DNA of 64,000 nucleotides, from contig JAQYWC010000065.1 of NCBI GenBank assembly GCA_030145245.1, positions 1 through 64,000 of the forward strand, given 5' to 3'. This DNA is from Desulfobacterium sp. (GTDB taxonomy: Bacteria > Desulfobacterota > Desulfobacteria > Desulfobacterales > Desulfobacteraceae). Positions 36,962-50,175 of the stretch are shown one piece after another (position 1 is the stretch's first letter; every line of letters begins with the position of its first letter). A model generated the notes under the pieces. The model did not search any database, was not told where the DNA came from, and saw nothing but the letters and a program-made list of their open reading frames with translations. Position numbers and translations under genes: made by a program.

Positions 36962-37972
36962 ATGAAAAAATCCATTTTATTCGGTTTAATTATTTCAATT
37001 CTACTTTGCGGCATGGTCTCAGCTGAACCCGCAAAAAAACTTTTGATCCTTGATTCACAAGGTGGTGAACCCTATGACCCAGCGCGAATTGCCATGATCC
37101 AGGAACTCGAAACACAGGGTTTTGTTGCCGGCAGGAATATCGAGATCAACAGGTTCAATGCTCAGAACAGAGAAGGATTGGCAAAGCGAATCTTAATGGA
37201 TGAAGCAGATAAAGGCTATGATCTGTTTTTCATAAACGGAACCGTTGCCAATAAATCTGCTTATAAATTCGGCTACAATAATCCCAAATATAAATTTGTA
37301 TTTTGCAGTATTACGGATCCGGTAGGTGTCGGATTAGTAGACAAACTTAACGCGCCCACGAATTCAAATTTTACTGGAATATCATATCCTGTATCTGTTG
37401 AAACAAGGCTCAGGTTTCTCAAAGAAGCATTGCCGGATGCAAAAAAAGTGGGGCTCATCTATGCAGACATGCCGCAATCACATAGTTATATTGTGTGGTT
37501 AAAGGAGGCCTTAAAGAAACCTGAGTTTAATGATTTAGAAATAATATACAGAGAAATAACCTTTGTAGAAGGCGACAAAGGACATCTTAGAATGGCTAAA
37601 CTTGCAAAAAGCCATGTGATAGAACTCGACGCTGTTGTTGATGTTTTTTTAACCCCCAGCGATCAGTTTGGAACCAAAAAATCTTTTGCACAAGTTGTTT
37701 CCGACAACTCAAATAAGCCGTTAATGGGACTGAGTGAAAAAGAGATCAAAGAGAACTGGGGGGCACATTTCGGCGTTTATATGGTTCAGAGTCTTTCCGG
37801 CAAACAGGCTGGAAAGATGATTGTCAGACTGTTAAAAGGGGAATCCATTAAAACGATCATTCCTACAAATCCATCGGGTGAATATGGGATAAATATGAAA
37901 CGTTCCAAAGCGATTGGCTTAAAATACCCCGAATCTGTTTTGAAAAAAGCAGGTCAAAATATTTTTTATTAA
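36962..37972 (+). CDS. ABC-type substrate-binding protein (ABC_sub_bind/TrpX-like), orphan
   Basis: A 336-residue exported protein with a signal peptide (SILFGLIISILLCGMVSAEP). The pattern of two alpha/beta lobes (KLLILDSQGGEPYDPARIAMIQELETQGF, later KKVGLIYADMPQSH and MGLSEKEIKENWGAHFGVYMVQ) fits the ABC_sub_bind family, which binds aromatic amino acids or related compounds. No cognate permease is present. The gene is clearly more AT-rich than the flanking genes. It has its own promoter and a GAGGAGAAGAAA leader. Confidence 0.8.
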   Translation: MKKSILFGLIISILLCGMVSAEPAKKLLILDSQGGEPYDPARIAMIQELETQGFVAGRNIEINRFNAQNREGLAKRILMDEADKGYDLFFINGTVANKSAYKFGYNNPKYKFVFCSITDPVGVGLVDKLNAPTNSNFTGISYPVSVETRLRFLKEALPDAKKVGLIYADMPQSHSYIVWLKEALKKPEFNDLEIIYREITFVEGDKGHLRMAKLAKSHVIELDAVVDVFLTPSDQFGTKKSFAQVVSDNSNKPLMGLSEKEIKENWGAHFGVYMVQSLSGKQAGKMIVRLLKGESIKTIIPTNPSGEYGINMKRSKAIGLKYPESVLKKAGQNIFY

Positions 37973-37990
37973 AGAGATTGTACATACCCC

Positions 37991-38716
37991 TTAGGCCTTG
38001 GTTTGTGCCACATAGACGGCACCCTCAGACGATCCGCCTGTTATTGGATTTTTAAACTCAATGGTGTGGGACTCGGCCGTTGCAAAGACCCGGGCCAGGT
38101 GGTTGGTAAAAGATGCCTCCGGGAAACCGTCGGCCCAAAGAGCAAACACCCCGCCAGGCTTTAAATGTTGGGCCAGTTCCGCAAGTCCCTCCTCACTATA
38201 GAAACGCGTGTTTGTCTGGTGTAATACCCGGGTGGGTGTGTGGTCTATATCCAGAAGAATGGCGTCATGTTTTTTTTCCGGATACGCCGGGTCAAAGCTT
38301 TTCGACACGTTGCGGGACAGGGCAAAAAAGTCGGCATGCACCAGTTGGCAACGGGGATCTTTTGTCAAAATCTTGCCCAGGGGGACAAGCCCGTTCTGGT
38401 GCCACTCAATGACCCCCTCTAAAAAATCCACGACCACAAGCGAGGTGACCCGCTTATCTTCCAATGCGGAAACAGCCGTGTAGCCGAGACCGAGACCGCC
38501 GACCACAACGTCGAGCTCTTCTTTTTCCAACATGCCAAGTCCAAGCTTGGCGAGCTGGGATTCCGCCTCATGGAACAGGCTTGACATGAGAAACTCTTCG
38601 CCAAGCTTCACTTCATATATTTCAAGCCCCCCGAGTTGGAGCAACCGGCGGCGCCGTAACATCAGATCCCCAAGGGACGTCTCTCTAAAATCTAATTCCT
38701 CGTAGTTTAAACCCAT
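37991..38716 (-). CDS. Spermidine synthase-like methyltransferase-fold protein
   Basis: About 241 residues from ATG 38716, chosen because GGGGGAAGA lies just upstream; the frame extends 42 codons further without a ribosome site. The N-terminal part has a small beta domain (LQLGGLEIYEVKLGEEFLMSS). The core carries the nucleotide-binding motif VVVGGLGLGYTA and DFLEGVIEWHQNG, as in spermidine-synthase relatives. The aminopropyltransferase gatekeeper loop is not evident, so a methyltransferase or unknown role is as likely. It is convergent with the binding-protein gene. Confidence 0.7.
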   Translation of the reverse strand: MGLNYEELDFRETSLGDLMLRRRRLLQLGGLEIYEVKLGEEFLMSSLFHEAESQLAKLGLGMLEKEELDVVVGGLGLGYTAVSALEDKRVTSLVVVDFLEGVIEWHQNGLVPLGKILTKDPRCQLVHADFFALSRNVSKSFDPAYPEKKHDAILLDIDHTPTRVLHQTNTRFYSEEGLAELAQHLKPGGVFALWADGFPEASFTNHLARVFATAESHTIEFKNPITGGSSEGAVYVAQTKA

Positions 38717-38989
38717 TCTTCCCCCTTCCAATAAAGTAGCGTTACAGTCCCCCCCTTGGAAACGATCCATGAAGTGGGCCAAGGCTTTATTACCACCACT
38801 TCCACTTTTTTCATAGCGTAAAGACCCCCATGGCGCGGCCATTCCACCTGGCGTTTACCCGCCTCTCCCCTGGGCGGAGGCCAATCCCATAAATCTGAGC
38901 CAGCCCGGAGGCACCGCGATCTTGACATTTCAGTCGGCCCGGCTTATGGTTAGGCCACTAACTAAACAACAGCTTGAGAAAGGAGAGAC

Positions 38990-39535
38990 ATGGTTACGCG
39001 TTTGGAAAAAAAGAATTCCAGGACTGTTCAGCCAACAGCATCCCCTAAGGTGGAGATCACCCCCTTTTCTCCTGAACATGGAAAAATGGTGGTTAATCTC
39101 ATTGTCGGGATCCAGCAAAACGAATTCAACATTCCCATCACCATCGATGATCAGCCCGATCTTTTGACGATCCCGGCATTTTACCAGAAGAGTAACGGCA
39201 ATTTCTGGGTGGCCCTTGACAAGGGCAAGGTGGTTGGCACCATCTCCCTCCTGGATATCGGCAATGGCCAAGTGGCCCTGAGAAAGATGTTTGTTGCAAA
39301 GGCGTACCGGGGAGGCAAAACAGCCACCGCCCAACAGCTGTTGAACCAAGCCTTGACCTGGTCCCGGGAGCAGGGGATTGATGGGATATTTCTCGGAACC
39401 ACCGCAAAATTCAAGGCGGCCCATAACTTTTACGAGAAAAGCGGTTTTCTTTTGATCTCCAAAAGCCACTTGCCCCAAAGCTTTCCCGTCATGACCGTGG
39501 ATACCCGGTTTTACTCTTACAGCATCCGGGCCTGA
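38990..39535 (+). CDS. GNAT-family N-acetyltransferase
   Basis: A 181-residue protein with the GNAT order: FWVALDKGKVVGTISLLDI (strands 2-4), LRKMFVAKAYRGGKTATAQQLL (motif A, acetyl-CoA pyrophosphate loop) and AHNFYEKSGFLLISKS (motif B). GAAAGGAGAG precedes the ATG. The substrate is unknown. The 273 bp upstream is GC-rich with several possible stems, but I could not assign a known RNA family. Confidence 0.82.
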   Translation: MVTRLEKKNSRTVQPTASPKVEITPFSPEHGKMVVNLIVGIQQNEFNIPITIDDQPDLLTIPAFYQKSNGNFWVALDKGKVVGTISLLDIGNGQVALRKMFVAKAYRGGKTATAQQLLNQALTWSREQGIDGIFLGTTAKFKAAHNFYEKSGFLLISKSHLPQSFPVMTVDTRFYSYSIRA

Positions 39536-39676
39536 AGTCTTAGGGTCACAAAGGGTGGCCATGGTGTCAGCGGTTCATATTCCATCCGACCTATTTCAGT
39601 AAAGTTGTGATCAACAAAAAGCCACCGGGTTCAATCAGGTAAAAATCACACATAAATTTATCCCCCTGACCGGTTT

Positions 39677-40381
39677 TTACTTACGTCTGGGATTCGTATT
39701 GCCGACAAGGCCACTGGTTTTTTCAAAGATGAAAACCCAGTTGTTCAGCCCCACAATCCAGGCCAGAATCCAGTATGGCCAGGACTCGTCAATAAGGTCC
39801 ATTGGAATGATGGGAAGAAACATCTGTACGATTCCAAAAAAAATACCGGCCATCACGACAGCGATGGGTGGATTGATGATAAACCAGACCGTTAAATGAT
39901 AGCTTGAAGGTTTTATTCCCCCGAGATTATGTAATTTGACGTACATGCTCACAAGGCTTCCGATCAATCCCATTAAAAGGACAGAATAAGGAATGTTGAA
40001 ACTCGGGAGCATGATACTGGCCGATGAGGTGAGGAATAAGAATGAGAGCAGGGCGACAAGGGTATATAGGGAGACGATAATGGAGATGCTTTTTTTCATT
40101 CTGTGGGTGGGGTTTTCAATGTCCATGGTAATCTCCCCAAGTTCTTTTTCAACCATGTCCAGGTCATCGCTGGAATTGGCTTCCTCCCTCATCTTCATCA
40201 GTCTGAGGTTGTACAATATCCCTTTTTTGTTGGCTTTCTGGAGGTCGAGTTTTTTACGTATTATATCAATATTCTTGATGATTTCGTCTCTGTACGCCCT
40301 GCTGTTGGAGATATAGCTATCCGGATTTATTCTATCTCGATCGCTGTGGATGAGCTTATGTGGACCTTCGGGTACAGCCAT
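39677..40381 (-). CDS. Four-helix membrane protein of the motor-like operon
   Basis: A 234-residue protein not assigned to a family. The N-terminal 100 residues are charged and probably coiled (YRDEIIKNIDIIRKKLDLQK and similar). Four membrane helices follow, around residues 100-118, 130-146, 163-185 and 197-215. The start has AAGGAGG. It is 35 bp downstream of the MotA/TolQ-like gene in the same direction, so it is probably a membrane partner of that complex. It is not similar to ZorC, ZorD or TolR as far as I can tell. Confidence 0.75.
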   Translation of the reverse strand: MAVPEGPHKLIHSDRDRINPDSYISNSRAYRDEIIKNIDIIRKKLDLQKANKKGILYNLRLMKMREEANSSDDLDMVEKELGEITMDIENPTHRMKKSISIIVSLYTLVALLSFLFLTSSASIMLPSFNIPYSVLLMGLIGSLVSMYVKLHNLGGIKPSSYHLTVWFIINPPIAVVMAGIFFGIVQMFLPIIPMDLIDESWPYWILAWIVGLNNWVFIFEKTSGLVGNTNPRRK

Positions 40382-40416
40382 CGGTTAATCCTCCTTATCT
40401 ATCAATCATCACGGGA

Positions 40417-41223
40417 TCAGGCATTTGTATCTTTCCAGATAAGTTCCAATGAATGGGTGAATTTGTCAACAAGTCTTAAATAGACTGAATCAACGGCGAG
40501 AAATGTATTCATGATTGTAAAGCAGACCGAAAGAAAAATCCCCACCACCGAGCTGTTCATGGCAAATGTCATACTTTCAAGAAATTGCCCAAGGGTTGCC
40601 TGTGCGGCCATAACATTCCCCGGATCAATGGCTTTCAAAGCCGGCAACCCCTTGCTGATCCCAAGAAATGTTCCTAGAATGCCTCCAATAATAAAGAGAC
40701 TGGGCAATATGGAGAGCACGCTGTTCATCATCCCGATGGGGATCACCCCCCACAGCTTGTTGAAATAGGGATTGGACATAAAGACATATCTTGAAATGCT
40801 CTTAAAATCAGGCTTATTGTCTTCATGGTGATACCGGGTCTGATTCAGGGTGTCAGCGATCAGGGAACGGGCACCGTCCTCCACCAGAAAAATTTTATGA
40901 AGAACAGCCACCTGGGGATCCCCCTTTCTCTTCCTGAACATTCTCTTCCGTTTCAGGTAGAGTTCCTCATAGGTTCTCCGCAAAATCGATTCCACAACAC
41001 CCGGAAAGGTGACAGATTCTTCTTTTCCACCACTATTGCTTTTCAGGTAACGGTGTGTTCTGGTTTCAATGGCCGAGGAGAGGTTGAACTCACAGCGTAT
41101 CAAATAATACATGAGCATCTTCAACACCACGCCCACCAAAAAGACCAGGAACATTAACAGCATCAGGTTTTCCGTACCATATTGGATCAGGTAGGTGCAC
41201 ATGTCGTTAATCATAATAGTCAT
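40417..41223 (-). CDS. MotA/TolQ/ExbB-like proton channel protein
   Basis: A 268-residue inner-membrane protein. A first helix at about 18-40, a long cytoplasmic loop with basic stretches (LKRKRMFRKRKGD), then two helices with the family pattern: LPSLFIIGGILGTFLGISKGL (about 172-192) and MTFAMNSSVVGIFLSVCFTIMN (about 218-239). These match the pore helices of MotA, TolQ and ZorA. The C-terminus is short, without the long tail of ZorA. The partner is the adjacent MotB-like protein, 11 bp away. The pair would form an ion-driven rotary or force-generating unit (family knowledge). Confidence 0.82.
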   Translation of the reverse strand: MTIMINDMCTYLIQYGTENLMLLMFLVFLVGVVLKMLMYYLIRCEFNLSSAIETRTHRYLKSNSGGKEESVTFPGVVESILRRTYEELYLKRKRMFRKRKGDPQVAVLHKIFLVEDGARSLIADTLNQTRYHHEDNKPDFKSISRYVFMSNPYFNKLWGVIPIGMMNSVLSILPSLFIIGGILGTFLGISKGLPALKAIDPGNVMAAQATLGQFLESMTFAMNSSVVGIFLSVCFTIMNTFLAVDSVYLRLVDKFTHSLELIWKDTNA

Positions 41224-41234
41224 GGCAATTTCTC

Positions 41235-43511
41235 CTATTTTATAAGATTAAACCTGATAACAGCTCTATGAAATTTTTCGCAATCATAATTTTTGCAAAA
41301 ATCATCCATCTTTATATCGGCGCCGGCCATCTCTTTTATTGGGGCTGTTTCCAGATAGCTGCGCCCGGCGACTTTAAGGTACATCATAAGATCTTTCTGC
41401 TTTCCGTAGTTCATATTACCCTTGTCCAAAATATACTTAAATATTGAACGCGCCCTTCTGTAACTAAGGTCCATATTGTAATTAAGAGCAGCCCTGGATT
41501 CATTTTTCAGGCTGTAGGGATCCACATATTTCCCCTTGTAGATCGGAGATGCAAATCCGACGACCTCGATGGACTGAATGTATTTGTAAATATCATTCTC
41601 ACCAAAGATGCTTTCTGCGTAAACCGGAATGATTTTTTGAAGGTAGTCCTTCATCTCGGTTTTCAAGTTGGCGCTGTCAAAATCAAAGTAGGCTTTTTCA
41701 AAGGGCAGGGTGACCTCACCGCTCTTCTCATCTATTTGTGCAGTGATTTTATTCCTGTCGAAATTGTCCTTCAGGCTTGAGATGATTTTATCCCTGAGTT
41801 TCTCTTTTTTCTTGTAATCCCCCAGTTCTTTCTGGAGGTCTTTGCGGGTTGCAGCCAGTTTCTGTTTTTCGTCCTCGGCCGCCTTTTTATCCTTTTCCAT
41901 GCTTTTCAGTTTTGAGAGTTTATCATCAAGGTTTTTCTCAAGCATTTCCTGGGCGGCAATGAGCCGGTCTTTCTCATCATCGGACGCTTTTTTCCCTTTT
42001 TCTATATCCCTGAGCCTGTTAGCCGTCTGCTTCAACTCGTCTTCAAGTGCTCTCTGGGCTGCTGCCAATTTATCTTTTTCAGCATCAGCAATTTCCTTGC
42101 CCTTCTCCATTTCCTGATATCTGGCTTTGCTTTCCCCCAGCTCCTCCAGGACCCTTTGTTTGTCAGCGAGGAGTTTCTCCTTGTCAGCATCTGCCTTTGC
42201 ATTTATCTTCTCCATGGCCTGGAGCTTATTTTCCGTTTTAAGGAGTTCTTTTTTAAGCTTGTTCTGAGCGGCGACAAGTTCCCTTTTATCTGCAGTCGCA
42301 GCATTCTTACCCTTTTTGAGGGAAAGGAGGCGGGCATTGTTCTTTTTCAGGTCTGCTGAAAGTTTTTTATGGGAGTCATAGAGCTTTCCTTTTTCAGCAT
42401 CGGCCATACGTCTTTTTTTCTCCATGACTTTTAGTTTTGTCTTGCTTTTCCCCAACTCTTTCTCAAGGCTTTTCTGGAGGGATGCCAGTCTCTTTTTTTC
42501 AGTAATAGCGACTTTCTTGTCCCTTTCGATGCGTTCTATCCTGGACCTGCTGTTGCCCAGCTGTGTTTCTAATTTTTTCTGAATAACTGCCAGCTGTTTT
42601 TTCTCCGCAACGGCATTTTGTCTATCCCTCTCCTGCTTCCGTAAAAGGACCATGCTACGGTTCAGGTCATCCTCAAGTTTCTCATGGGCGGCGAGGAGTC
42701 TCTTTTTTTCTGCCTTACCTATCTCTTTTGCCTTAATCAGCTCTTTTACACGACCCTGCTTTTCAGATAACTCCTGCCTGAGCTCTGCCTGGGCCATTTG
42801 AAGCTTTTCTTTGTCTTCGGCAATATCCGATTTTTCCGATTCCAGGGTTATAAGCTCCGACTCCTGGCTTTTCATCTTCTCTTCCAGGGATTCCCTCAGC
42901 ATTCGCAGTTCCGCGTTGCTCTCGGCAATTTCGTTTGAGGCCTCACTCAGGTCTTTGAGCTCCCTTTCCCGCTGTGCAAGCCGGTTGCGGACATCAGTCA
43001 CATCCGCCTGATGCCTTTGTTGTTCCTGATTAAGGGTTTCATCAAATTTGATTCTGTTCTGATTATTGAGGATTTTCTGCTGGGACAAAGAAGAGGCCAG
43101 AAAGTTATTTCTGTCTTTTATATGCTTGAATACAGTCTGGTAATTGTTGAAAAGATCTTTTTCCTTCTCCTGGTAGGAATTGATCTGCTGGGAAAAATTC
43201 TCTGCAGCCTCCCGGGCATTATTCTCCAGCAAAGCCAGTCGTATCAGAACCTTTTCAAGGTCAATCTCTTCGGGTTCATCCCCAGAAGCCCCATCATCCT
43301 CCTGGGCGATAACTTCGTATTCCTTGAGCTGTGTCTCAAATTTGCTGAATTCAATCCTCGACGAGATGGATTCAAGGCTCAACTGGAGGACCGAAATCAC
43401 GTAGAGAAAAAGAAACACAAAGGCAAGGGCCGCAAAGAGATCGCTGTATGAGCTCATCGACGTTTGAGGCGACTCTTCCGTCTGACTGATTTGATCATAA
43501 TTCAGACTCAT
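41235..43511 (-). CDS. MotB/OmpA-like protein with ten 35-residue coiled-coil repeats
   Basis: A 758-residue protein. The single membrane helix (about 22-48) starts with an Asp (D24 in SYSDLFAALAFVFLF), at the place of the proton-binding Asp of MotB. After an acidic linker comes coiled coil from about 100 to 585, of which 233-582 are ten perfect-length 35-residue repeats. Residues about 595-758 form an OmpA/MotB-type peptidoglycan-binding domain (PFEKAYFDFDSANLK, EVVGFASPIYKGK, NMDLSYRRARSIFKYIL). It is first in an operon with the MotA-like and four-helix proteins. The function of the complex is unknown. Confidence 0.85.
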   Translation of the reverse strand: MSLNYDQISQTEESPQTSMSSYSDLFAALAFVFLFLYVISVLQLSLESISSRIEFSKFETQLKEYEVIAQEDDGASGDEPEEIDLEKVLIRLALLENNAREAAENFSQQINSYQEKEKDLFNNYQTVFKHIKDRNNFLASSLSQQKILNNQNRIKFDETLNQEQQRHQADVTDVRNRLAQRERELKDLSEASNEIAESNAELRMLRESLEEKMKSQESELITLESEKSDIAEDKEKLQMAQAELRQELSEKQGRVKELIKAKEIGKAEKKRLLAAHEKLEDDLNRSMVLLRKQERDRQNAVAEKKQLAVIQKKLETQLGNSRSRIERIERDKKVAITEKKRLASLQKSLEKELGKSKTKLKVMEKKRRMADAEKGKLYDSHKKLSADLKKNNARLLSLKKGKNAATADKRELVAAQNKLKKELLKTENKLQAMEKINAKADADKEKLLADKQRVLEELGESKARYQEMEKGKEIADAEKDKLAAAQRALEDELKQTANRLRDIEKGKKASDDEKDRLIAAQEMLEKNLDDKLSKLKSMEKDKKAAEDEKQKLAATRKDLQKELGDYKKKEKLRDKIISSLKDNFDRNKITAQIDEKSGEVTLPFEKAYFDFDSANLKTEMKDYLQKIIPVYAESIFGENDIYKYIQSIEVVGFASPIYKGKYVDPYSLKNESRAALNYNMDLSYRRARSIFKYILDKGNMNYGKQKDLMMYLKVAGRSYLETAPIKEMAGADIKMDDFCKNYDCEKFHRAVIRFNLIK
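41766..42815 (-). repeat. Ten 105-bp (35-codon) coiled-coil repeats
   Basis: Units begin at residues 233, 268, 303, 338, 373, 408, 443, 478, 513 and 548 of the protein. The pattern is (E/D)K-x-x-L-x-x-x-Q-x-x-L, later MEK-x-K. Each unit equals five heptads. The register is never broken, although the sequences have diverged, so length is under selection. Confidence 0.88.
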
Positions 43512-43938
43512 GATTAAACCCCTTAGTATGGCTTATTTTGGTGATGACACCCACCGCTGTTAACGGTCACTTATTATTGCTAATAACAATGAATATGCCA
43601 GAGGTCGCTTAATTGAGATAGAGTTTAACAGAAGCCGATTTATATTGAGATTGCGGCATTTTTGAACCGGCATAAAGAAAAGTTAGTTATTGGGGAATAC
43701 CACGTCAGCTTAACCGCTTCTTCTTTGAATTTATTTGACACCTCCAGGTGGTTTTTTTACCCCACTCTTAACAAGTGCCCACAAATAAGTTACCATCTCA
43801 AGTGATTTTTTGTCAACAAAAGTATCAAAGAAAAATTAAACCACTGAAAGATGCGTCGCGTCCGGCACAGACACAACATTTTGGGTATATCAAGGGATTT
43901 ACCCCATACACTTTCTGAATTAATTTCTCACCAGCCCC
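43512..43938. other. Intergenic region upstream of the motor-like operon
   Basis: AT-rich, no gene seen. A minus-strand TTGACA (43816-43811) with a 17-bp spacer and a poor -10 (GTAACT, 43793-43788) could drive the operon with a leader of about 270 nt. A small hairpin followed by T7 (about 43739-43759) points in the plus direction, where no gene needs it. Confidence 0.4.
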
Positions 43939-44769
43939 TTAGGGAGCGATCACCTTGTCATCCCCTCCGTTGTGGGATTTTGCTTTCAGGTATCCGTCTC
44001 CGTTCTCCTGGGAAACCATAATAAGGGACTCTTTACCGTTTTTGTTGAGTAGGGAAATGTAACCGCCGTCCGAATCTGATTTTAAGGTAACCAGATCATT
44101 TTTTTGGTGTACCAGGCTTAAAAATGGGCCGCCGTTATCGCGGTACATGCCGGCGGTCAGGAACGCTTCGTTTTGTGAAGAGAAAAGTTTGATGTAGCCA
44201 CTGTTTCCGGCAGACGAATAGAGCTGGAGTTTATTCTCTGCATTCCCGTTATTGATATCAATACAGCCCGATCCGCCGATGGCGGAACATATTTTGACCG
44301 CTTCCTTATTATCGCTGTTTTTAACCGATATGGAATCGACGATGATGTCTCCCAGATTGAAAGGAAACTCTTGCTTGAACCTGGCCAGGTATTCTTCGTA
44401 CCGGGCACCCATCTCTTCCTGTTTTTTCAGGTTGATGGCTTCAACGGTTTCCAGGTAGTCGGTCGATGCCTGCCCAGCTTCAAAAGCCACTCTTCCGATT
44501 GCAGAACGCATCTCCTGATGGATATCGTTTGACAATGCTGCGAATTTTTCGTCGCCGTCTGAGAGTCTCTTTTCCAATGCGGTGATTTCAGCCCGGAGTG
44601 CTTCGATCTCAGAGGATGCCGCCTTGAGAAGCTTCAAGCCGTAGGCACCGCAGAAAACGAAAGCAACAATAATGAGCGCTGCAGTCCACGATTTCTTATC
44701 ATGGGGACCCGTATTTCTTTCAGCGTTGTGTGTTATTTCTTCCAATGTAATGTTTTTCTCTTCTGTCAT
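43939..44769 (-). CDS. Membrane-anchored coiled-coil protein with beta repeats
   Basis: About 276 residues from ATG 44769 (GGAAGGTG upstream). One membrane helix (SWTAALIIVAFVFCGAYGLKLL) is followed by coiled coil (about 50-135). From about residue 165 to the end come five repeats of roughly 23 residues with alternating hydrophobics and G-Y/C-I/L starts (SGCIDINN, SGYIKLFS, GYISLLNK, GYLKAKS). The layout suggests an oligomeric stalk carrying a beta-solenoid or triple beta-helix outside the inner membrane. No family recognised. It is co-oriented with the motor-like operon but separated from it by 427 bp. Confidence 0.65.
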   Translation of the reverse strand: MTEEKNITLEEITHNAERNTGPHDKKSWTAALIIVAFVFCGAYGLKLLKAASSEIEALRAEITALEKRLSDGDEKFAALSNDIHQEMRSAIGRVAFEAGQASTDYLETVEAINLKKQEEMGARYEEYLARFKQEFPFNLGDIIVDSISVKNSDNKEAVKICSAIGGSGCIDINNGNAENKLQLYSSAGNSGYIKLFSSQNEAFLTAGMYRDNGGPFLSLVHQKNDLVTLKSDSDGGYISLLNKNGKESLIMVSQENGDGYLKAKSHNGGDDKVIAP

Positions 44770-44967
44770 GATGCACCTTCCTTTATGGTTGTATGGTGGG
44801 CGTTGAATGGATCGGAAGCGTGGTTGATTTTCATTAATATAATATATACGGGGCATTAAATAAATAGTTCTTTGAAATGACAGATGAGGGGGGATAGGCT
44901 TTAAGGGTGTTGGTCGGTCTTAAAATACCTTTATAGCCAAATAACACCTGAAACGGTAAATCTGAAA

Positions 44968-45137: not shown

Positions 45138-45149
45138 GGTATATCAGTG

Positions 45150-45569
45150 TTATTTGATGGCGGCGCTTATCTTCTCCGCCCGCGCCTTGATCTCATCCAT
45201 GTTGCCGGGTTTGATATCCCACTTGGCAATGGGAAGGGCGGGCTGGTCGTCTCTCCTGGGCACCAGGTGAAGGTGGTAGTGCATCACCTCCTGTTGAACC
45301 GCACGGCCGTTGAGCTGCATGCAGGCGATGCCGTCGACGTTCAGGGCCTCCTTGATGCCCCTGGCAATTTTTCTGGATGCCCGTTGCACGGCCAGCAGGT
45401 CTTCCTCGGATATATCCCAGATGTTTTCAGCGTGGTTTTTGGGAATCACCAGGGTGTGGCCCGGCGAGATGGGGTTGATGTCCTCAAAGGCAAACACCTT
45501 TTCATCCTCATACACCTTGAAGCTTGGTATCTCGCCCTTGATGATTTTACAAAAAATACAGTCGTCCAT
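45150..45569 (-). CDS. HIT-family (histidine triad) nucleotide-binding protein
   Basis: A 139-residue protein of the HinT branch: a zinc-type CIFC (C4, C7) at the N-terminus and the histidine triad HYHLHLVPR (H97, H99, H101). Relatives hydrolyse adenosine phosphoramidates or related nucleotide conjugates. AAGGAG precedes the ATG. It lies 86 bp downstream of sbcC in the same direction. Confidence 0.92.
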   Translation of the reverse strand: MDDCIFCKIIKGEIPSFKVYEDEKVFAFEDINPISPGHTLVIPKNHAENIWDISEEDLLAVQRASRKIARGIKEALNVDGIACMQLNGRAVQQEVMHYHLHLVPRRDDQPALPIAKWDIKPGNMDEIKARAEKISAAIK

Positions 45570-45655
45570 TTGTCGCTCCTTATGGGTAATTGATGTTCGT
45601 ATCGATGGTTCCTTTGTTAGTCGTTTTTTTGGCCTTTATCAATATATAATTTTCC

Positions 45656-48600
45656 TCACTCGCCCATCACCCTGATGGTGCTGGTACCTCCGGACACGGG
45701 CACCACGTCGATCTTGGCCGTAATGCGTTCTTTTAAGGCATCCACGTGGGAGATGATGCCCACGGTCTTGCCGGAGGCGTTGAGGGTGTCCAGGGCGGCA
45801 AGGGCCGTCTCCAGGGTTTCGGTGTCCAGGGTGCCGAACCCTTCGTCAAGGAAGAGGGATTCGATGTTGGTGCGCTGGCTTGTGAGATCGGACAGTCCCA
45901 AGGCAAGGGAAAGGCTCACAAGGAAGGACTCCCCGCCTGAGAGGTTTTCCGTGGGCCTGATCCTGTCACCGAAATAGGTGTCGATCACCGTGATCCCGAG
46001 GTCATGCTCCCGGCTTCGCTTGAGAAGGTAGCGCTGGCTCAGCATGGCAAGGTAGGTGTTGGCCTTGAGGGTGAGCCTGTCCAAAGTGAGTCCCTGGGCA
46101 AATTTCCGGAACTTTCCCCCGTCCTGCTGCCCGATCAACTGGTTAAGGCCGTTCCACCGCCTTGTCTCGGCCCGCTGGCGCTCCTCCTGCTCAAGCTTTT
46201 CCTGGTGCTCGGCGCACCGTTTCCGATTTTCCTCAAGCTTAAACTCGTCCCCATGCTTCATCCGGGTAAGCTCGGTCATGGTTTTGGAGAGCACGGCCTC
46301 GGCCTCCTGGAGCGCCTCCAGGGTCTCCTCCGTTTCCGGGTTCTCCACAAGGGCTTCAAGCCTTGCCTCGTTGTCCCGGGCCAGGGCCTCGAGTTTGACC
46401 CTCTGGTTGTTGAGGGTCCTGGCAAGGGATTCCAGGTGCTCAAGCTCCTTTTGGGCAATCCTGGCCCCCAGGAAATCGTTCTCATGGGCAAATCCGGCTG
46501 CCTGAATCTCCGTGTTAAACCGCTCTCCAAGGGTTTTGGCCTTTTCCCTGGCAGCCGCAAGCTCGTTTTCGGACGTTGCGATCCCCTCGAGGGTTCCCTG
46601 GAGCCCGGCCTCGGTGCGGGTGATGGCTTTTTCCAGCGCTGCAAGGCCTTGCTCCCCCTGCTTCAACTGACCCTTGAGTCGCTCCTTAAGATCTTTCAGC
46701 TCCTTTTCAACCACATGGGGGTGTTCAACCATGGACGCGGTTTCAAGATCGGCTTTTTGGGCCCTTGTTCCGCATTGCTCCATGAGCGCTGCCAGATTAT
46801 TGCGCTTCTCCGTCAGGAGGGCGTTGATCTCGCCGATCTCCGTCCCAAGGCCGGCCGCCTTTTCCTCAAGTTTTTCCGCCATGGCAAGGGCGTTAACAGC
46901 GTCAACTTCGGCACGGCCCCGGGCTTTCTCCCCCTGCTGGATCAGCTTGTCCGACCGGACCTGGGCCTGGTTCAACTGTTTCAGCGCTTTCAGGGTATCG
47001 CCTGCCGCAACCAGGGCCTGCTTCACCTCCTCTTCATGGTGTTCAAGTGCCTGCCATTGGGAGATGGGAAGGGTGATCCCGGTCTGGTCGGCAAGGATGC
47101 CGGCCTCGTTTCGGGCACGGATGACACCGGCCTCCTCCTCGGCAATTCTTTCCGTATGGTTCTTGATGGTGTTGGCAAGCTCCACCCGTTGTGCTGCAAG
47201 CGCCTGTTTTTCCATATTCAACTTAGACAGGAGTTCCTCTGTTGCAACAATGGCCTTTGCCGTGGTCCCGGTTTCAGGGAGCTCCCCTGCAAAGGGGTGG
47301 TCTGTGGAACCGCAAAGGGGACAGGGCGAATCCTTGACCAGCTCTTTTCGCATCTCTTCCAGGCTCACTATCTTGAGCTCGATCTCCCGGGCCGCCTTGA
47401 GATCCCCAAGGGATCGTGTGAGCGCCTCCTCCCTTTCAGCAAGGGGGGATTCCATTTTTAAAACCTGGTCCAACCGTTCCCGGCACCCCTTGACCGAAGC
47501 GGTAAGCATCCCAATCTTTTCGGATCGCCCGTGAGCCTCTTTTGCCCGCTCCTTCTGTTTCTCAATCAGGCGTTTCCGGGTCTCCATATTTCCCAGGGAC
47601 GCTTCAAGGGCGGTTTCATCGGTATTGCCAAACCCTTTCGCAAGCTCATTGGCAATCTTTTGCTTTTCAGCGACCCGCATTTGAAGTTCCTGGGTCAGGC
47701 GCTCAACCGTTTTCTTACGCTCCAGGGCGGTTTGCTCCGCGATTTTGAGACTCCCAAGGGTGCTCTTTTTATCCGTGGCTTTCCGGGCCAGCCGGACCTC
47801 CTCGTTATGAAGTTCCTGACCACGCTCGCGGATCAGGGGAAGAAAACGCCCGATCTCCTCAAGGAGTTCCAGACGGATTTCAACGGTTTTCCCCAGGGTG
47901 TCGACACGCTTTGCATCCAGCCCGTGCTGTGCCTTGAGGTTCTTGAGCTCATGGTTGATCCGGGGGAGGGCTTCTTTGCCCGTGAGGATCTTCTTTTCAA
48001 GGGCCTGGCAGATATCCCGTGATCCTGCAAGGGTGGCATGGGCAGCCGAAAAAGGAGATGCCCTCCGGGCCTGTTGCAGGCGTTCAAGATCCGGGGCGGC
48101 CTGTTTTTCACCCGTCACAAGCTGTTCAAGATCATTCCTGCACTTGAGGGCCGTTGCCCTGCATGCCGCAACGTCCATGAGAAACTGCTTCTGGGTAAGA
48201 AGAGCCTTGCCCTTTTCTTCGGCACGGGTGATCTCCCCATTTTTTTCTTCGATCCTCTCCTTGAGCCCATCAATCTCATCCCCGGAGAGAAGATTGAAAT
48301 TGGCCAGCATCTGCTGGATGGCCGCAAGCTTGAGCTCCTCCTCCTTGTTCCGTTCAAAGCTCTTTTGGGAGATGAGGGAGTAGATCCGGGTACCGGTGAT
48401 CTTCTCAAGCAGCACGGCCCGCTCGTCGTCGCTTGCCTTGAGAAAGGCGGCAAAGTTGCCCTGGGCCAGGAGCATGGAGCGGCAAAACCGGTCAAAATCT
48501 AGCCCGGTGAGATCCTCCACCGCCTTGGGCACCTTGGATTTGGATGCCATGATGGTCCCGGTCGCAACATCGATGAGCTCCATATTGGCCGCCTGGATCG

Positions 48601-48919
48601 CTCCGTCCGGTTTTTTGCGCGCCCTGTGGCGGCCGTACCAGGAGCGGTATTGCTTCCCGTTCACGGTAAAGGTCACCTCGCAGGCGCACTCACCGGTGTG
48701 GTGGGTCATGAGCTCCTCCATCTCCCCGGCCCTGGGAAGCCTGGGGGTCCTTCCGTAGAGGGCGGCACAGAGCCCGTCAAGGATGCTTGTCTTGCCGGCG
48801 CCGGTGGGACCGGTGATGGCGAACACCCCGGCCTTGCCCGGCATGAATTGATCGAAATCGATCAGGAAACTTCCCTTCAGGGAATTGATGTTGGTCAGGG
48901 CAATGGTCAGAATTCTCAT
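45656..48919 (-). CDS. sbcC: SbcC, ATPase subunit of the SbcCD nuclease
   Basis: A 1087-residue SMC/Rad50-type ATPase. The N-terminal Walker A GPTGAGKTS (about 37-45), two long coiled-coil arms, the zinc-hook CPLC near residue 530, the signature LSGGESFLVSLSLALGL and the Walker B LFLDEGFGTLD are all present. With SbcD it opens hairpins and processes double-strand ends. It overlaps sbcD by 4 bp, so translation is coupled. Confidence 0.96.
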   Translation of the reverse strand: MRILTIALTNINSLKGSFLIDFDQFMPGKAGVFAITGPTGAGKTSILDGLCAALYGRTPRLPRAGEMEELMTHHTGECACEVTFTVNGKQYRSWYGRHRARKKPDGAIQAANMELIDVATGTIMASKSKVPKAVEDLTGLDFDRFCRSMLLAQGNFAAFLKASDDERAVLLEKITGTRIYSLISQKSFERNKEEELKLAAIQQMLANFNLLSGDEIDGLKERIEEKNGEITRAEEKGKALLTQKQFLMDVAACRATALKCRNDLEQLVTGEKQAAPDLERLQQARRASPFSAAHATLAGSRDICQALEKKILTGKEALPRINHELKNLKAQHGLDAKRVDTLGKTVEIRLELLEEIGRFLPLIRERGQELHNEEVRLARKATDKKSTLGSLKIAEQTALERKKTVERLTQELQMRVAEKQKIANELAKGFGNTDETALEASLGNMETRKRLIEKQKERAKEAHGRSEKIGMLTASVKGCRERLDQVLKMESPLAEREEALTRSLGDLKAAREIELKIVSLEEMRKELVKDSPCPLCGSTDHPFAGELPETGTTAKAIVATEELLSKLNMEKQALAAQRVELANTIKNHTERIAEEEAGVIRARNEAGILADQTGITLPISQWQALEHHEEEVKQALVAAGDTLKALKQLNQAQVRSDKLIQQGEKARGRAEVDAVNALAMAEKLEEKAAGLGTEIGEINALLTEKRNNLAALMEQCGTRAQKADLETASMVEHPHVVEKELKDLKERLKGQLKQGEQGLAALEKAITRTEAGLQGTLEGIATSENELAAAREKAKTLGERFNTEIQAAGFAHENDFLGARIAQKELEHLESLARTLNNQRVKLEALARDNEARLEALVENPETEETLEALQEAEAVLSKTMTELTRMKHGDEFKLEENRKRCAEHQEKLEQEERQRAETRRWNGLNQLIGQQDGGKFRKFAQGLTLDRLTLKANTYLAMLSQRYLLKRSREHDLGITVIDTYFGDRIRPTENLSGGESFLVSLSLALGLSDLTSQRTNIESLFLDEGFGTLDTETLETALAALDTLNASGKTVGIISHVDALKERITAKIDVVPVSGGTSTIRVMGE

Positions 48920-50175
48920 GGCAGTTCCTGGTTCTCCTGGTCAATCATTGCGGTTATCTCCCTGAAGGCCAGGGTCAACTCCTCTTTCACGTCAGGCGCC
49001 ATCTCCCCTTCCGCCGCAAGCCGTCTCTCAAACACCTCTTCCGGTGTAAAGTGGGCAAGCTCGGTGGTACTATCCATCTCCTCCCCGCACAGGATGGCCA
49101 GCTTTTTCAAGCGCTTGATGGCAAAGATTTCAAGGGTTGACCCTTCCACGCTAAGGTTGATCCTCTCCTCGGTGTCCGGCTGCCAGGTCTCGCTGTCCAC
49201 GGAGATCTCCACCCAGGTGGTGGGAAAATCTGCCCCGGGGTCTCCCGCCTCGGATTTAAGGGTCCCAAGGGTCTCAAGAACGCTGTCCAGATCGCCCTTG
49301 ACGGCCCTGAGCCGCTGGAACTCAGGCACCTCCAGGGATTGAATCTCCATGGTTTCATTGCCTTGTGCAAACGTGATGGAGAGCACCTGTTTTTTGCTGC
49401 CGGCCTCGCTGAAGCTTAAGGGAATGGGGGAGCCGGAATAACGGACATGGTCCAGCCCACCAGCGGTCTGGGCCCGGTGTAGATGGCCCAGGGCCACGTA
49501 GTCAAAGGCCACCGGAATCTGGGCGACGTTAAACTTATCAAGGCTTCCCACATGGATATCCCGGATATGCTCCCCCTCCTTGACCTCGCCCCCGGCGGCA
49601 AACAGGTGGCCCGTGGCAATGATGGGAACCGGCCGGGACCTGTCCCACCCTTCCAGGGCTTTTGCGGCAATTTCCTCATAGTGCGCCTTTATCCCCTGGG
49701 CCAGGGCCTTGTTCTTCTCCTCATAGCTTTCCCCGGGAAGGGAGCGCCGGATGTCCCGGTCCCTGAGGAAGGGTACGGCGCAGACAATGGCCGATGTCTG
49801 GCCTGACCCGTCCCTGACCGTGATGATCTCCTCTTCCGGATCCCCGGTGATGCCGCCGACAACATGGATATCCATGGTCTCAAGGATCTCCCTGGGTGCG
49901 TTGAGGCAGGCCACGGAGTCGTGGTTTCCCCCGGTGATGACGATCTTTCTGCAGCAGGTCGCGGATGCCCGGGACAGAAACCTGTAATACATGGACAAAG
50001 CGTAGTTGGGAGGGGTGGCCGTGTCAAAGATGTCCCCTGAAACGATCAAGAGATCAATGGCCCTGGTTTCTATTGTTGCAAGGAGCCAGTCAAGGAAATG
50101 CCCGTGCTCCTTTTTTCTCTCCCTGAACATGAAGTTCTGGCCCAGATGCCAGTCAGACGTGTGCAGTATGTTCAT
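48916..50175 (-). CDS. sbcD: SbcD, nuclease subunit of the SbcCD complex
   Basis: About 419 residues from ATG 50175 (GGAAGACC upstream). Mre11-type metallophosphoesterase motifs: HTSDWHLGQ at the N-terminus, SGDIFD, GGNHDS, a GHLF-type motif and GHLHRAQ. The open frame runs 25 codons further upstream, but those codons match a tyrosine recombinase motif and are not part of SbcD (listed separately). Confidence 0.94.
   Translation of the reverse strand: MNILHTSDWHLGQNFMFRERKKEHGHFLDWLLATIETRAIDLLIVSGDIFDTATPPNYALSMYYRFLSRASATCCRKIVITGGNHDSVACLNAPREILETMDIHVVGGITGDPEEEIITVRDGSGQTSAIVCAVPFLRDRDIRRSLPGESYEEKNKALAQGIKAHYEEIAAKALEGWDRSRPVPIIATGHLFAAGGEVKEGEHIRDIHVGSLDKFNVAQIPVAFDYVALGHLHRAQTAGGLDHVRYSGSPIPLSFSEAGSKKQVLSITFAQGNETMEIQSLEVPEFQRLRAVKGDLDSVLETLGTLKSEAGDPGADFPTTWVEISVDSETWQPDTEERINLSVEGSTLEIFAIKRLKKLAILCGEEMDSTTELAHFTPEEVFERRLAAEGEMAPDVKEELTLAFREITAMIDQENQELP

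What the first reader, a model, noticed from the sequence alone, without database searches (positions are those of the whole stretch)
39677..43511. Possible undescribed ion-driven envelope machine with a very long repeat stalk
The operon pairs a MotA/TolQ/ZorA-like channel protein with a MotB-like protein that keeps the membrane Asp and an OmpA domain, but places ten uninterrupted 35-residue coiled-coil repeats (about 350 residues) between them. In Zorya the long tail is on the ZorA side; here it is on the MotB side, and no ZorC/D/E-like nuclease follows. A four-helix membrane protein is the third member. A straight coil of this size is far longer than the periplasm is wide, so it must fold back, lie flat or sit elsewhere.
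Basis: partly seen in the sequence, partly recalled or inferred. Interest (0 to 1): 0.65.

Follow-up and report, generated by a model that had tools for sequence, protein, structure and literature searches.

The report
Ion-driven motor with periplasmic stalk
A three-gene set found in a few deltaproteobacterial genomes appears to encode a relative of the Zorya and Tol ion-driven motors whose long rod sits on the other subunit, probably between the two membranes, with an unknown membrane protein where Zorya has its DNA-acting partners.

Summary
B (758 aa) has one membrane helix with Asp24, ten in-register 35-residue coiled-coil repeats (residues 230-579) and a ZorB/OmpA-like C-terminal domain. 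A (268 aa) is a tail-less ZorA/TolQ/ExbB-type protein. C (234 aa) is a membrane protein, probably with four helices, that matches no known family. The B-A-C order recurs in five other deltaproteobacterial MAGs; a scan of 84,980 species found only those five, with narrow patterns. Array length differs between species, with no gap inside any of the five complete arrays. Residues matching the ZorA Thr/Ser ring and the ZorB Asp are kept. Neighbouring genes tested show no ZorC/D/E, while control Zorya loci do. It is a ZorAB-clan 5:2-type motor that fails Zorya membership: rod on B instead of A, gene order reversed, effectors absent. Most likely it is an accessory envelope machine that turns ion flow into motion or tension of a long periplasmic rod, with C as membrane partner (inferred). 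The main rival is an anti-phage system with C as effector. A same-genus genome has the same flanks without these genes. Some residues that ZorB needs to bind peptidoglycan appear changed, so anchoring there is open.

The parts
41235..43511 (-). Gene B, 758 aa: membrane helix with Asp24, 35-residue repeat stalk, ZorB/OmpA-like C-terminal domain
43362..43454 (-). B residues 20-50: hydrophobic segment holding D24
   Evidence: D24 in 5 of 5 complete B proteins
41775..42824 (-). B residues 230-579: ten contiguous 35-residue coiled-coil units (a weaker unit precedes, residues 195-229)
41238..41774 (-). B residues 580-758: ZorB/OmpA-like C-terminal domain
   Evidence: PADLOC ZorB1 match covers residues 555-722, E 1e-28; alignment A3 of six
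40417..41223 (-). Gene A, 268 aa: tail-less ZorA/TolQ/ExbB-type protein
   Evidence: three hydrophobic regions
39677..40381 (-). Gene C, 234 aa: membrane protein of no known family, probably four helices

Best explanation
B-A-C encodes an accessory ion-driven motor of the ZorAB/TolQR/MotAB type with its rod on the periplasmic side. By homology, five A subunits surround two B helices, and ion flow past B Asp24 and the A Thr185/Ser225 ring turns A and B relative to each other. The two B chains continue into a coiled coil of 35-residue units in the periplasm and end in ZorB/OmpA-like domains that hold on to the cell wall or another envelope partner. Because A lacks the cytoplasmic tail that Zorya uses, the output would be mechanical (twist, pull or reach) through the rod to the envelope. 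C would be the inner-membrane partner that anchors or gates the A ring. Shown here: the gene set, its conservation, the repeat array, the kept ion-path residues, no Zorya effector among the neighbours tested. Inferred: stoichiometry, rotation, side of the rod, envelope output, role of C.
For: B-A-C order in 6 of 6 loci read, B complete in 5. ZorB1 E 1e-28 and ZorA1 E 1.4e-8 for the window pair; 4 of 4 further B proteins scanned match ZorB1 (E 3e-26 to 3e-31) and 2 of 2 further A proteins match ZorA1. A T185 and S225 lie opposite ZorA T147 and S184 (counted by hand) and are invariant in 6 of 6; D24 in 5 of 5 complete B. A model: 49 of 50 listed Foldseek hits are from TolQ, ExbB or ZorAB entries. 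Stalk periodic in 5 of 5 complete B, without gaps in the arrays. A has no tail: 268-270 aa against 684-787 aa in four ZorA read in full. Invariant Cx4C pair in the C-terminal domain in 6 of 6 fits an oxidising compartment, weakly.
Against: No experiment and no complex model. The A model is weak (pLDDT 64, best Foldseek E 3.9e-3, none below 0.001) and the C model unusable (pLDDT 56). The N-terminus of B is net acidic, so charge alone does not fix the side of the rod. GHTD/GHTS of ZorB reads G(F/Y/S)ASP and the RR before the last strand is changed, so wall anchoring is uncertain. Patchy occurrence and a variable site would equally suit a defence system.
Confidence: 0.5

Rival explanations
1. A Zorya-like anti-phage system: B with its long rod senses envelope damage during DNA entry, ion flow through A-B signals it, and C is a membrane effector in place of ZorC/D/E.
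For: Closest profile matches are ZorA and ZorB. Sparse: C in 7 of 389 genomes of the order, one of them a weak hit without the set. The flanks are shared with a same-genus genome that lacks the set.
Against: The cytoplasmic extension of ZorA, needed for Zorya I and II defence (PMC11890865, section 6), is missing. No defence system among ten neighbouring genes tested, only three weak hits. C has no PADLOC match in 3 of 3 C proteins and one C fusion scanned. Not found on plasmids (A, B domain), phages (C) or viral contigs (A).
Confidence: 0.33
2. A surface-movement or cell-shape motor of the Agl or Gld kind, working with an MreB or a periplasmic MORN protein.
For: A second MreB lies downstream of C in G444 and G515; a secreted-looking MORN gene follows C in G485, and a related one follows a ZorAB pair in G405.
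Against: G444 and G515 are of one genus; neither neighbour occurs in the window, L026 or L029; in G451 the MORN gene is not beside a motor. No other motility partner was recognised.
Confidence: 0.12
3. Decaying or artefactual reading: a chance coiled coil fused to an OmpA-type gene.
Against: Six loci, 61-68% identity to the window in A and 62-69% in the B C-terminal domain, open frames and gap-free arrays.
Confidence: 0.02

Closest known systems
ZorAB core of Zorya type I/II (PADLOC ZorA1/ZorB1; PDB 8QYD, 8VVN, 8VVI)
   Same: Best profile matches for both A and B; ion-path Asp and Thr/Ser positions; Cx4C before the last strand, also in ZorB of L034, L052, L053, L054 and L056
   Different: Long rod on B instead of on A; B precedes A; no ZorC/D/E among neighbours tested; changed peptidoglycan-site residues; extra protein C
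TolQR/TolA and ExbBD/TonB
   Same: A model resembles TolQ/ExbB chains; short tail-less A; force carried across the periplasm (recalled)
   Different: No TolA/TonB recognised beside the set; the Asp helix, rod and end domain are one protein with an OmpA/ZorB-like domain; the genome has other PF01618 loci, 10 hits, of which 8 were read
GldLM (gliding, type 9 secretion)
   Same: Inner dimer extended as a periplasmic shaft, 18 nm for GldM (PMC9389320, passages)
   Different: GldM is built of folded domains, here a coiled coil of 35-residue units with an OmpA-like end; no sequence match to Gld proteins seen
TPH-vWA force transducers (PMC12204202, section 8)
   Same: Pore helix with the Asp and the transducing part are one protein, with a TolQ-like partner
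   Different: End domain vWA there, OmpA/ZorB-like here; linker described there as about 100 residues for a related vWA family, here about 500 residues of coil
Flagellar MotAB
   Same: OmpA-like end domain on B and Asp in the membrane helix
   Different: MotA has four membrane helices and a torque interface (recalled); here three hydrophobic regions in A; the genome has a separate MotAB-like pair (L005)

Membership tests
Zorya anti-phage system | ZorA- and ZorB-like pair | tested here: met
   PADLOC ZorB1 E 1e-28, ZorA1 E 1.4e-8; below NCBIfam cut-offs for ZorA and ZorB2
Zorya anti-phage system | Long cytoplasmic tail on ZorA, needed for defence | tested here: not met
   A is 268-270 aa in 6 of 6; ZorA 684-787 aa in four loci read in full; need for the tail from PMC11890865
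Zorya anti-phage system | ZorC/ZorD or ZorE beside ZorAB | tested here: not met
   No match in C or the upstream gene nor in ten neighbours across five loci; not every neighbour was scanned. Positive control: ZorC and ZorD in L032 and L033, ZorD in L034
Zorya anti-phage system | Anti-phage activity | not testable with these tools
   needs plating assays
Zorya anti-phage system | ZorB peptidoglycan-site residues (H186, L199, R203, R254, R259 in ZorB I) | tested here: inconclusive
   Residue list from PMC11890865. By alignment, equivalents of H186 and R254 changed, L199, R203 and R259 kept; alignment near the last strand is uncertain
5:2 ion-driven motors (Mot/Tol/Exb/Zor clan) | Asp in the B membrane helix and Thr/Ser ring in A | tested here: met
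5:2 ion-driven motors (Mot/Tol/Exb/Zor clan) | Five A around two B | not testable with these tools
   no complex prediction available
Tol/Exb (PF01618 MotA_ExbB) | MotA_ExbB above Pfam's cut-off | tested here: not met
   12.8 bits against 22.9; not among the 10 hits in the own genome
Flagellar MotAB | Flagellar-type A subunit with a large torque interface | tested here: inconclusive
   three hydrophobic regions, hits to TolQ/ExbB/ZorA entries; interface not modelled with confidence

The most novel reading that the evidence does not exclude
A new class of ion-driven envelope machine in which a rotary core winds, swings or tensions a very long (50-80 nm if straight) periplasmic coiled-coil dimer of 35-residue units, whose length evolves by adding whole units, acting at a distance along the cell wall together with a dedicated membrane partner C.
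Probability: 0.35. Interest if true: 0.85.

Novelty: new variant of a known kind. Interest (0 to 1): 0.6.

Why it matters
In Zorya the cytoplasmic tail of ZorA is needed for defence (PMC11890865), and how motor motion becomes a signal is open. A related pair with the rod on the other subunit, probably on the other side of the membrane, and no nuclease beside it, separates the motor core from the defence effectors. It allows a direct test of what a ZorAB-type motor does on its own and whether such a motor can drive a long periplasmic rod. It also warns that ZorA/ZorB profile hits need not mean Zorya defence: a ZorAB pair followed by a MORN gene, with no ZorC/ZorD seen in the genes beside it, was found in genome G405.

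Tried and rejected
Rejected: a housekeeping Tol, Exb or Mot pair. The own genome has 10 PF01618 hits and this locus is not among them; the flanks of 8 of the 10 were read and show Tol/Exb-type and MotAB-like sets (by eye).

Rejected: long-stalk B proteins as a common feature of the class. Eight further ZorB-profile hits, six of them chosen for long frames, were read: in seven no MotA-like gene was recognised beside the hit, and L097 is a MotAB-like pair. Eight of a long, capped list; not exhaustive.

Led nowhere: AlphaFold of C (pLDDT 56, pTM 0.31), not used for a fold search. A profile of C over 395 genomes of the phylum found the own copy and six weak hits (E 0.002-0.01), judged chance and not followed. 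The tree of B domains (30 rows; the stalk and Z_L049, where a wrong frame had been picked, left out; L028 too short; L055, L060 and the second copies of our own loci not entered) makes the family one clade (100/100) on a branch of 2.8 changes per column; its place among ZorB and MotB rows is unresolved. SMC matches to B are generic coiled coil. The MORN link was checked in seven genomes: one match beside B-A-C in G485, one beside ZorAB in G405, one gene away from any motor seen in G451, none in four. Low GC as a sign of transfer is weak: another gene nearby, 36962-37972, has GC 0.39.
Full report
Observation. The window holds three closely spaced minus-strand genes: B 41235-43511 (758 aa), A 40417-41223 (268 aa) and C 39677-40381 (234 aa), with gaps of 11 and 35 bp. 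B has one hydrophobic segment at residues 20-50 with Asp24, then a coiled-coil region, then a C-terminal domain. The 35-residue period is strong: identity at lag 35 is 0.260 against at most 0.179 in 500 shuffles that keep heptad blocks, and the hydrophobic period is 3.5. Written in blocks of 35 counted back from the C-terminal domain, residues 230-579 give ten units without a gap; 195-229 is a weaker unit. If all helical, residues 61-579 would be about 77 nm long and the ten units about 52 nm (arithmetic, 0.1485 nm per residue, recalled).

What the proteins are. Against Pfam, B reaches OmpA at E 4.3e-4 and A reaches MotA_ExbB at E 0.1, both below cut-offs; C reaches nothing convincing. Against PADLOC, B matches ZorB1 at E 1e-28 (best stretch 555-722) and A matches ZorA1 at E 1.4e-8; C has no match. 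NCBIfam gives ZorA and ZorB2 hits below cut-offs. A profile of six A proteins matches solved ZorA chains at E 7.8e-5, with A T185 and S225 opposite ZorA T147 and S184 (positions counted by hand on the printed alignment). Both are invariant in 6 of 6. In Zorya, ZorB D24 packs against a Ser/Thr ring of ZorA (PMC11890865, section 6). The A model is weak (pLDDT 64, pTM 0.46), all helical, and 49 of the 50 listed Foldseek hits are from TolQ, ExbB or ZorAB entries, best E 3.9e-3, none below 0.001. PMC12505986 describes a beta-sheet in the cytoplasmic part as unique to Zorya-type A proteins (passage); the weak A model shows none, which counts against Zorya membership but not firmly. Hydropathy marks three regions in A and three in C above threshold; a fourth C helix (201-227) comes from the low-confidence model. 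Loop charges of C under a four-helix reading (loop 2 +1 to +2, loop 3 -2 to -3 in 6 of 6) fit N-in and C-in, but its N-terminal part is net acidic in 6 of 6 and its C-terminus runs from +3 to -3.

Relatives. C was sought in 389 genomes of the order: 7 match at E 0.001. One is the own copy, five have C next to A and B, one (G411, E 3.4e-4) is a weak hit without the set. The A profile scanned against genome contigs gave five relatives. The scan used two peptide patterns, so distant relatives may be missed. The records are four 'Deltaproteobacteria bacterium' MAGs and one 'Desulfobacteraceae bacterium' MAG. A sought in 395 genomes of the phylum matched 8, the own one and seven weak; of these seven, L032 and L033 carry ZorC and ZorD and L034 carries ZorD; the other four were not profile-tested. 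Nothing was found in plasmids (A; B domain), phages (C) or viral contigs (A profile).

The layout is constant. In 6 of 6 loci the order is B-A-C on one strand. B is complete in five (722-864 aa) and cut by the contig end in L028; A is 268-270 aa, C 234-271 aa. Identity at lag 35 exceeds every heptad shuffle in 5 of 5 complete B. From a conserved anchor to the motif LKDNF the distances are 456 (window), 561, 491 and 421, all 1 modulo 35, and 469 in L027, whose part before the repeats is shorter; inside the arrays no gap was seen (by eye). Tandem repeats expand by whole units anyway, so this does not prove selection on length, but the lack of smaller gaps fits a rod that stays in register.

Difference from Zorya. 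In four loci where both genes were read in full, ZorA is 684, 787, 755 and 761 aa and precedes a ZorB of 246, 261, 238 and 236 aa (L032, L033, L034, L098). Here A is tail-less, B precedes A, and the long coil is in B. The ZorA extension is required for defence by Zorya I and II (PMC11890865). In the C-terminal domain the ZorB GHTD/GHTS motif reads G(F/Y/S)ASP in 6 of 6, the Arg of LSxxRA is kept, the RR before the last strand reads QS or HR, and a Cx4C pair is invariant; the same Cx4C spacing occurs in ZorB of L034, L052, L053, L054 and L056. Of the ZorB I residues reported as needed for peptidoglycan binding (H186, L199, R203, R254, R259; PMC11890865), the equivalents of H186 and R254 look changed and the others kept. 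The alignment near the last strand is uncertain, and GFAD occurs in one other row (L057), so peptidoglycan binding is unproven, not excluded. A tree of 30 B-type rows, stalk left out, makes the family one clade (100/100) on a long branch with unresolved placement.

Surroundings. The set is accessory. In same-genus G722 the flanks match (window 37989-39536 at 83%, 45148-49443 at 88%), but the stretch between holds other genes and no B-A-C. C was found in neither of the two same-genus genomes (G718, G722). The three genes have GC 0.44-0.45 against 0.505-0.58 in speE, GNAT, HIT, SbcC and SbcD, though a gene at 36962-37972 has 0.39. Ten neighbouring genes from the window, L025, L026, L027 and L029 gave no defence system; three had weak hits (HEAT repeat, methylase-like, PDC). 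A secreted-looking MORN-repeat gene follows C in L025, and a related one (35% identity, E 7e-57) follows a ZorA-ZorB pair in G405; there the MORN gene and one further neighbour have no PADLOC match and the rest look like housekeeping genes by eye. A second MreB lies downstream of C in G444 and G515, two genomes of one genus. In G451 a second C copy is fused behind a DnaJ domain, next to a MinD/ParA-type ATPase.

Mechanism. By homology the core is an A5:B2 ion-driven motor. As the A tail is missing, a force or signal can leave through the B rod, through C, or through the small cytoplasmic part of A. I favour an envelope output through the rod (0.5) over a defence system with C as effector (0.33) and a surface-movement or shape motor (0.12). 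If the C-terminal domains are anchored, A with C would turn around B and twist or tension the coil; if A is held by C, the rod would turn. This cannot be decided here. A straight rod of this length cannot stand upright in a periplasm of about 25-30 nm (recalled), so it would lie along the wall, tilt or fold.

Literature. Searches for the layout (open-licence papers only, mostly listings seen) showed no description. Seen in more depth: PMC11890865 abstract and section 6; PMC12505986 abstract and passages; PMC9389320 passages; PMC12204202 passages and section 8. PMC12204202 describes vWA proteins whose pore helix carries the Asp inside a TolQ-like pentamer and states that further 5:2-motor systems remain to be discovered. 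PMC9389320 notes that A-before-B order is well kept, with an exception in Desulfovibrio magneticus. The Nature 2025 Zorya paper was not held; T147 and S184 as its ion-path residues are recalled.

Verdict. A real, conserved layout that I did not find described; a ZorAB-clan motor, but not Zorya by gene content and tail position; function open. New variant of a known kind, interest 0.6.

Noticed in passing
L030:6984-7955 (G451): Second copy of C fused behind a DnaJ domain (323 aa, DnaJ E 1.5e-7), next to a MinD/ParA-type ATPase gene.
   Followed up: partly
L098:4720-8550 (G405): ZorA (761 aa) and ZorB (236 aa) followed by a secreted-looking MORN-repeat protein, with no ZorC/ZorD recognised beside them.
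   Followed up: partly
L027:3377-4459 and L028:2634-3827: An additional MreB gene downstream of C, besides a stronger MreB match elsewhere in each genome.
   Followed up: partly
window 43520-43938: Gap upstream of B reads, in one frame, a short stretch resembling the start of an IS3-type transposase OrfA (resemblance recalled).
   Followed up: no
window 43939-44856: 305-aa protein with one hydrophobic segment and a coil, no family match above cut-off.
   Followed up: no
L029:6648-7160: 170-aa protein with an HSDR_N_2 (type I restriction R-subunit N-terminus) domain on the opposite strand beside C; no PADLOC match.
   Followed up: no
L002 and L003 (own genome): Two ExbB-type proteins of 461 and 487 aa with a long extra part before the MotA_ExbB domain.
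   Followed up: no
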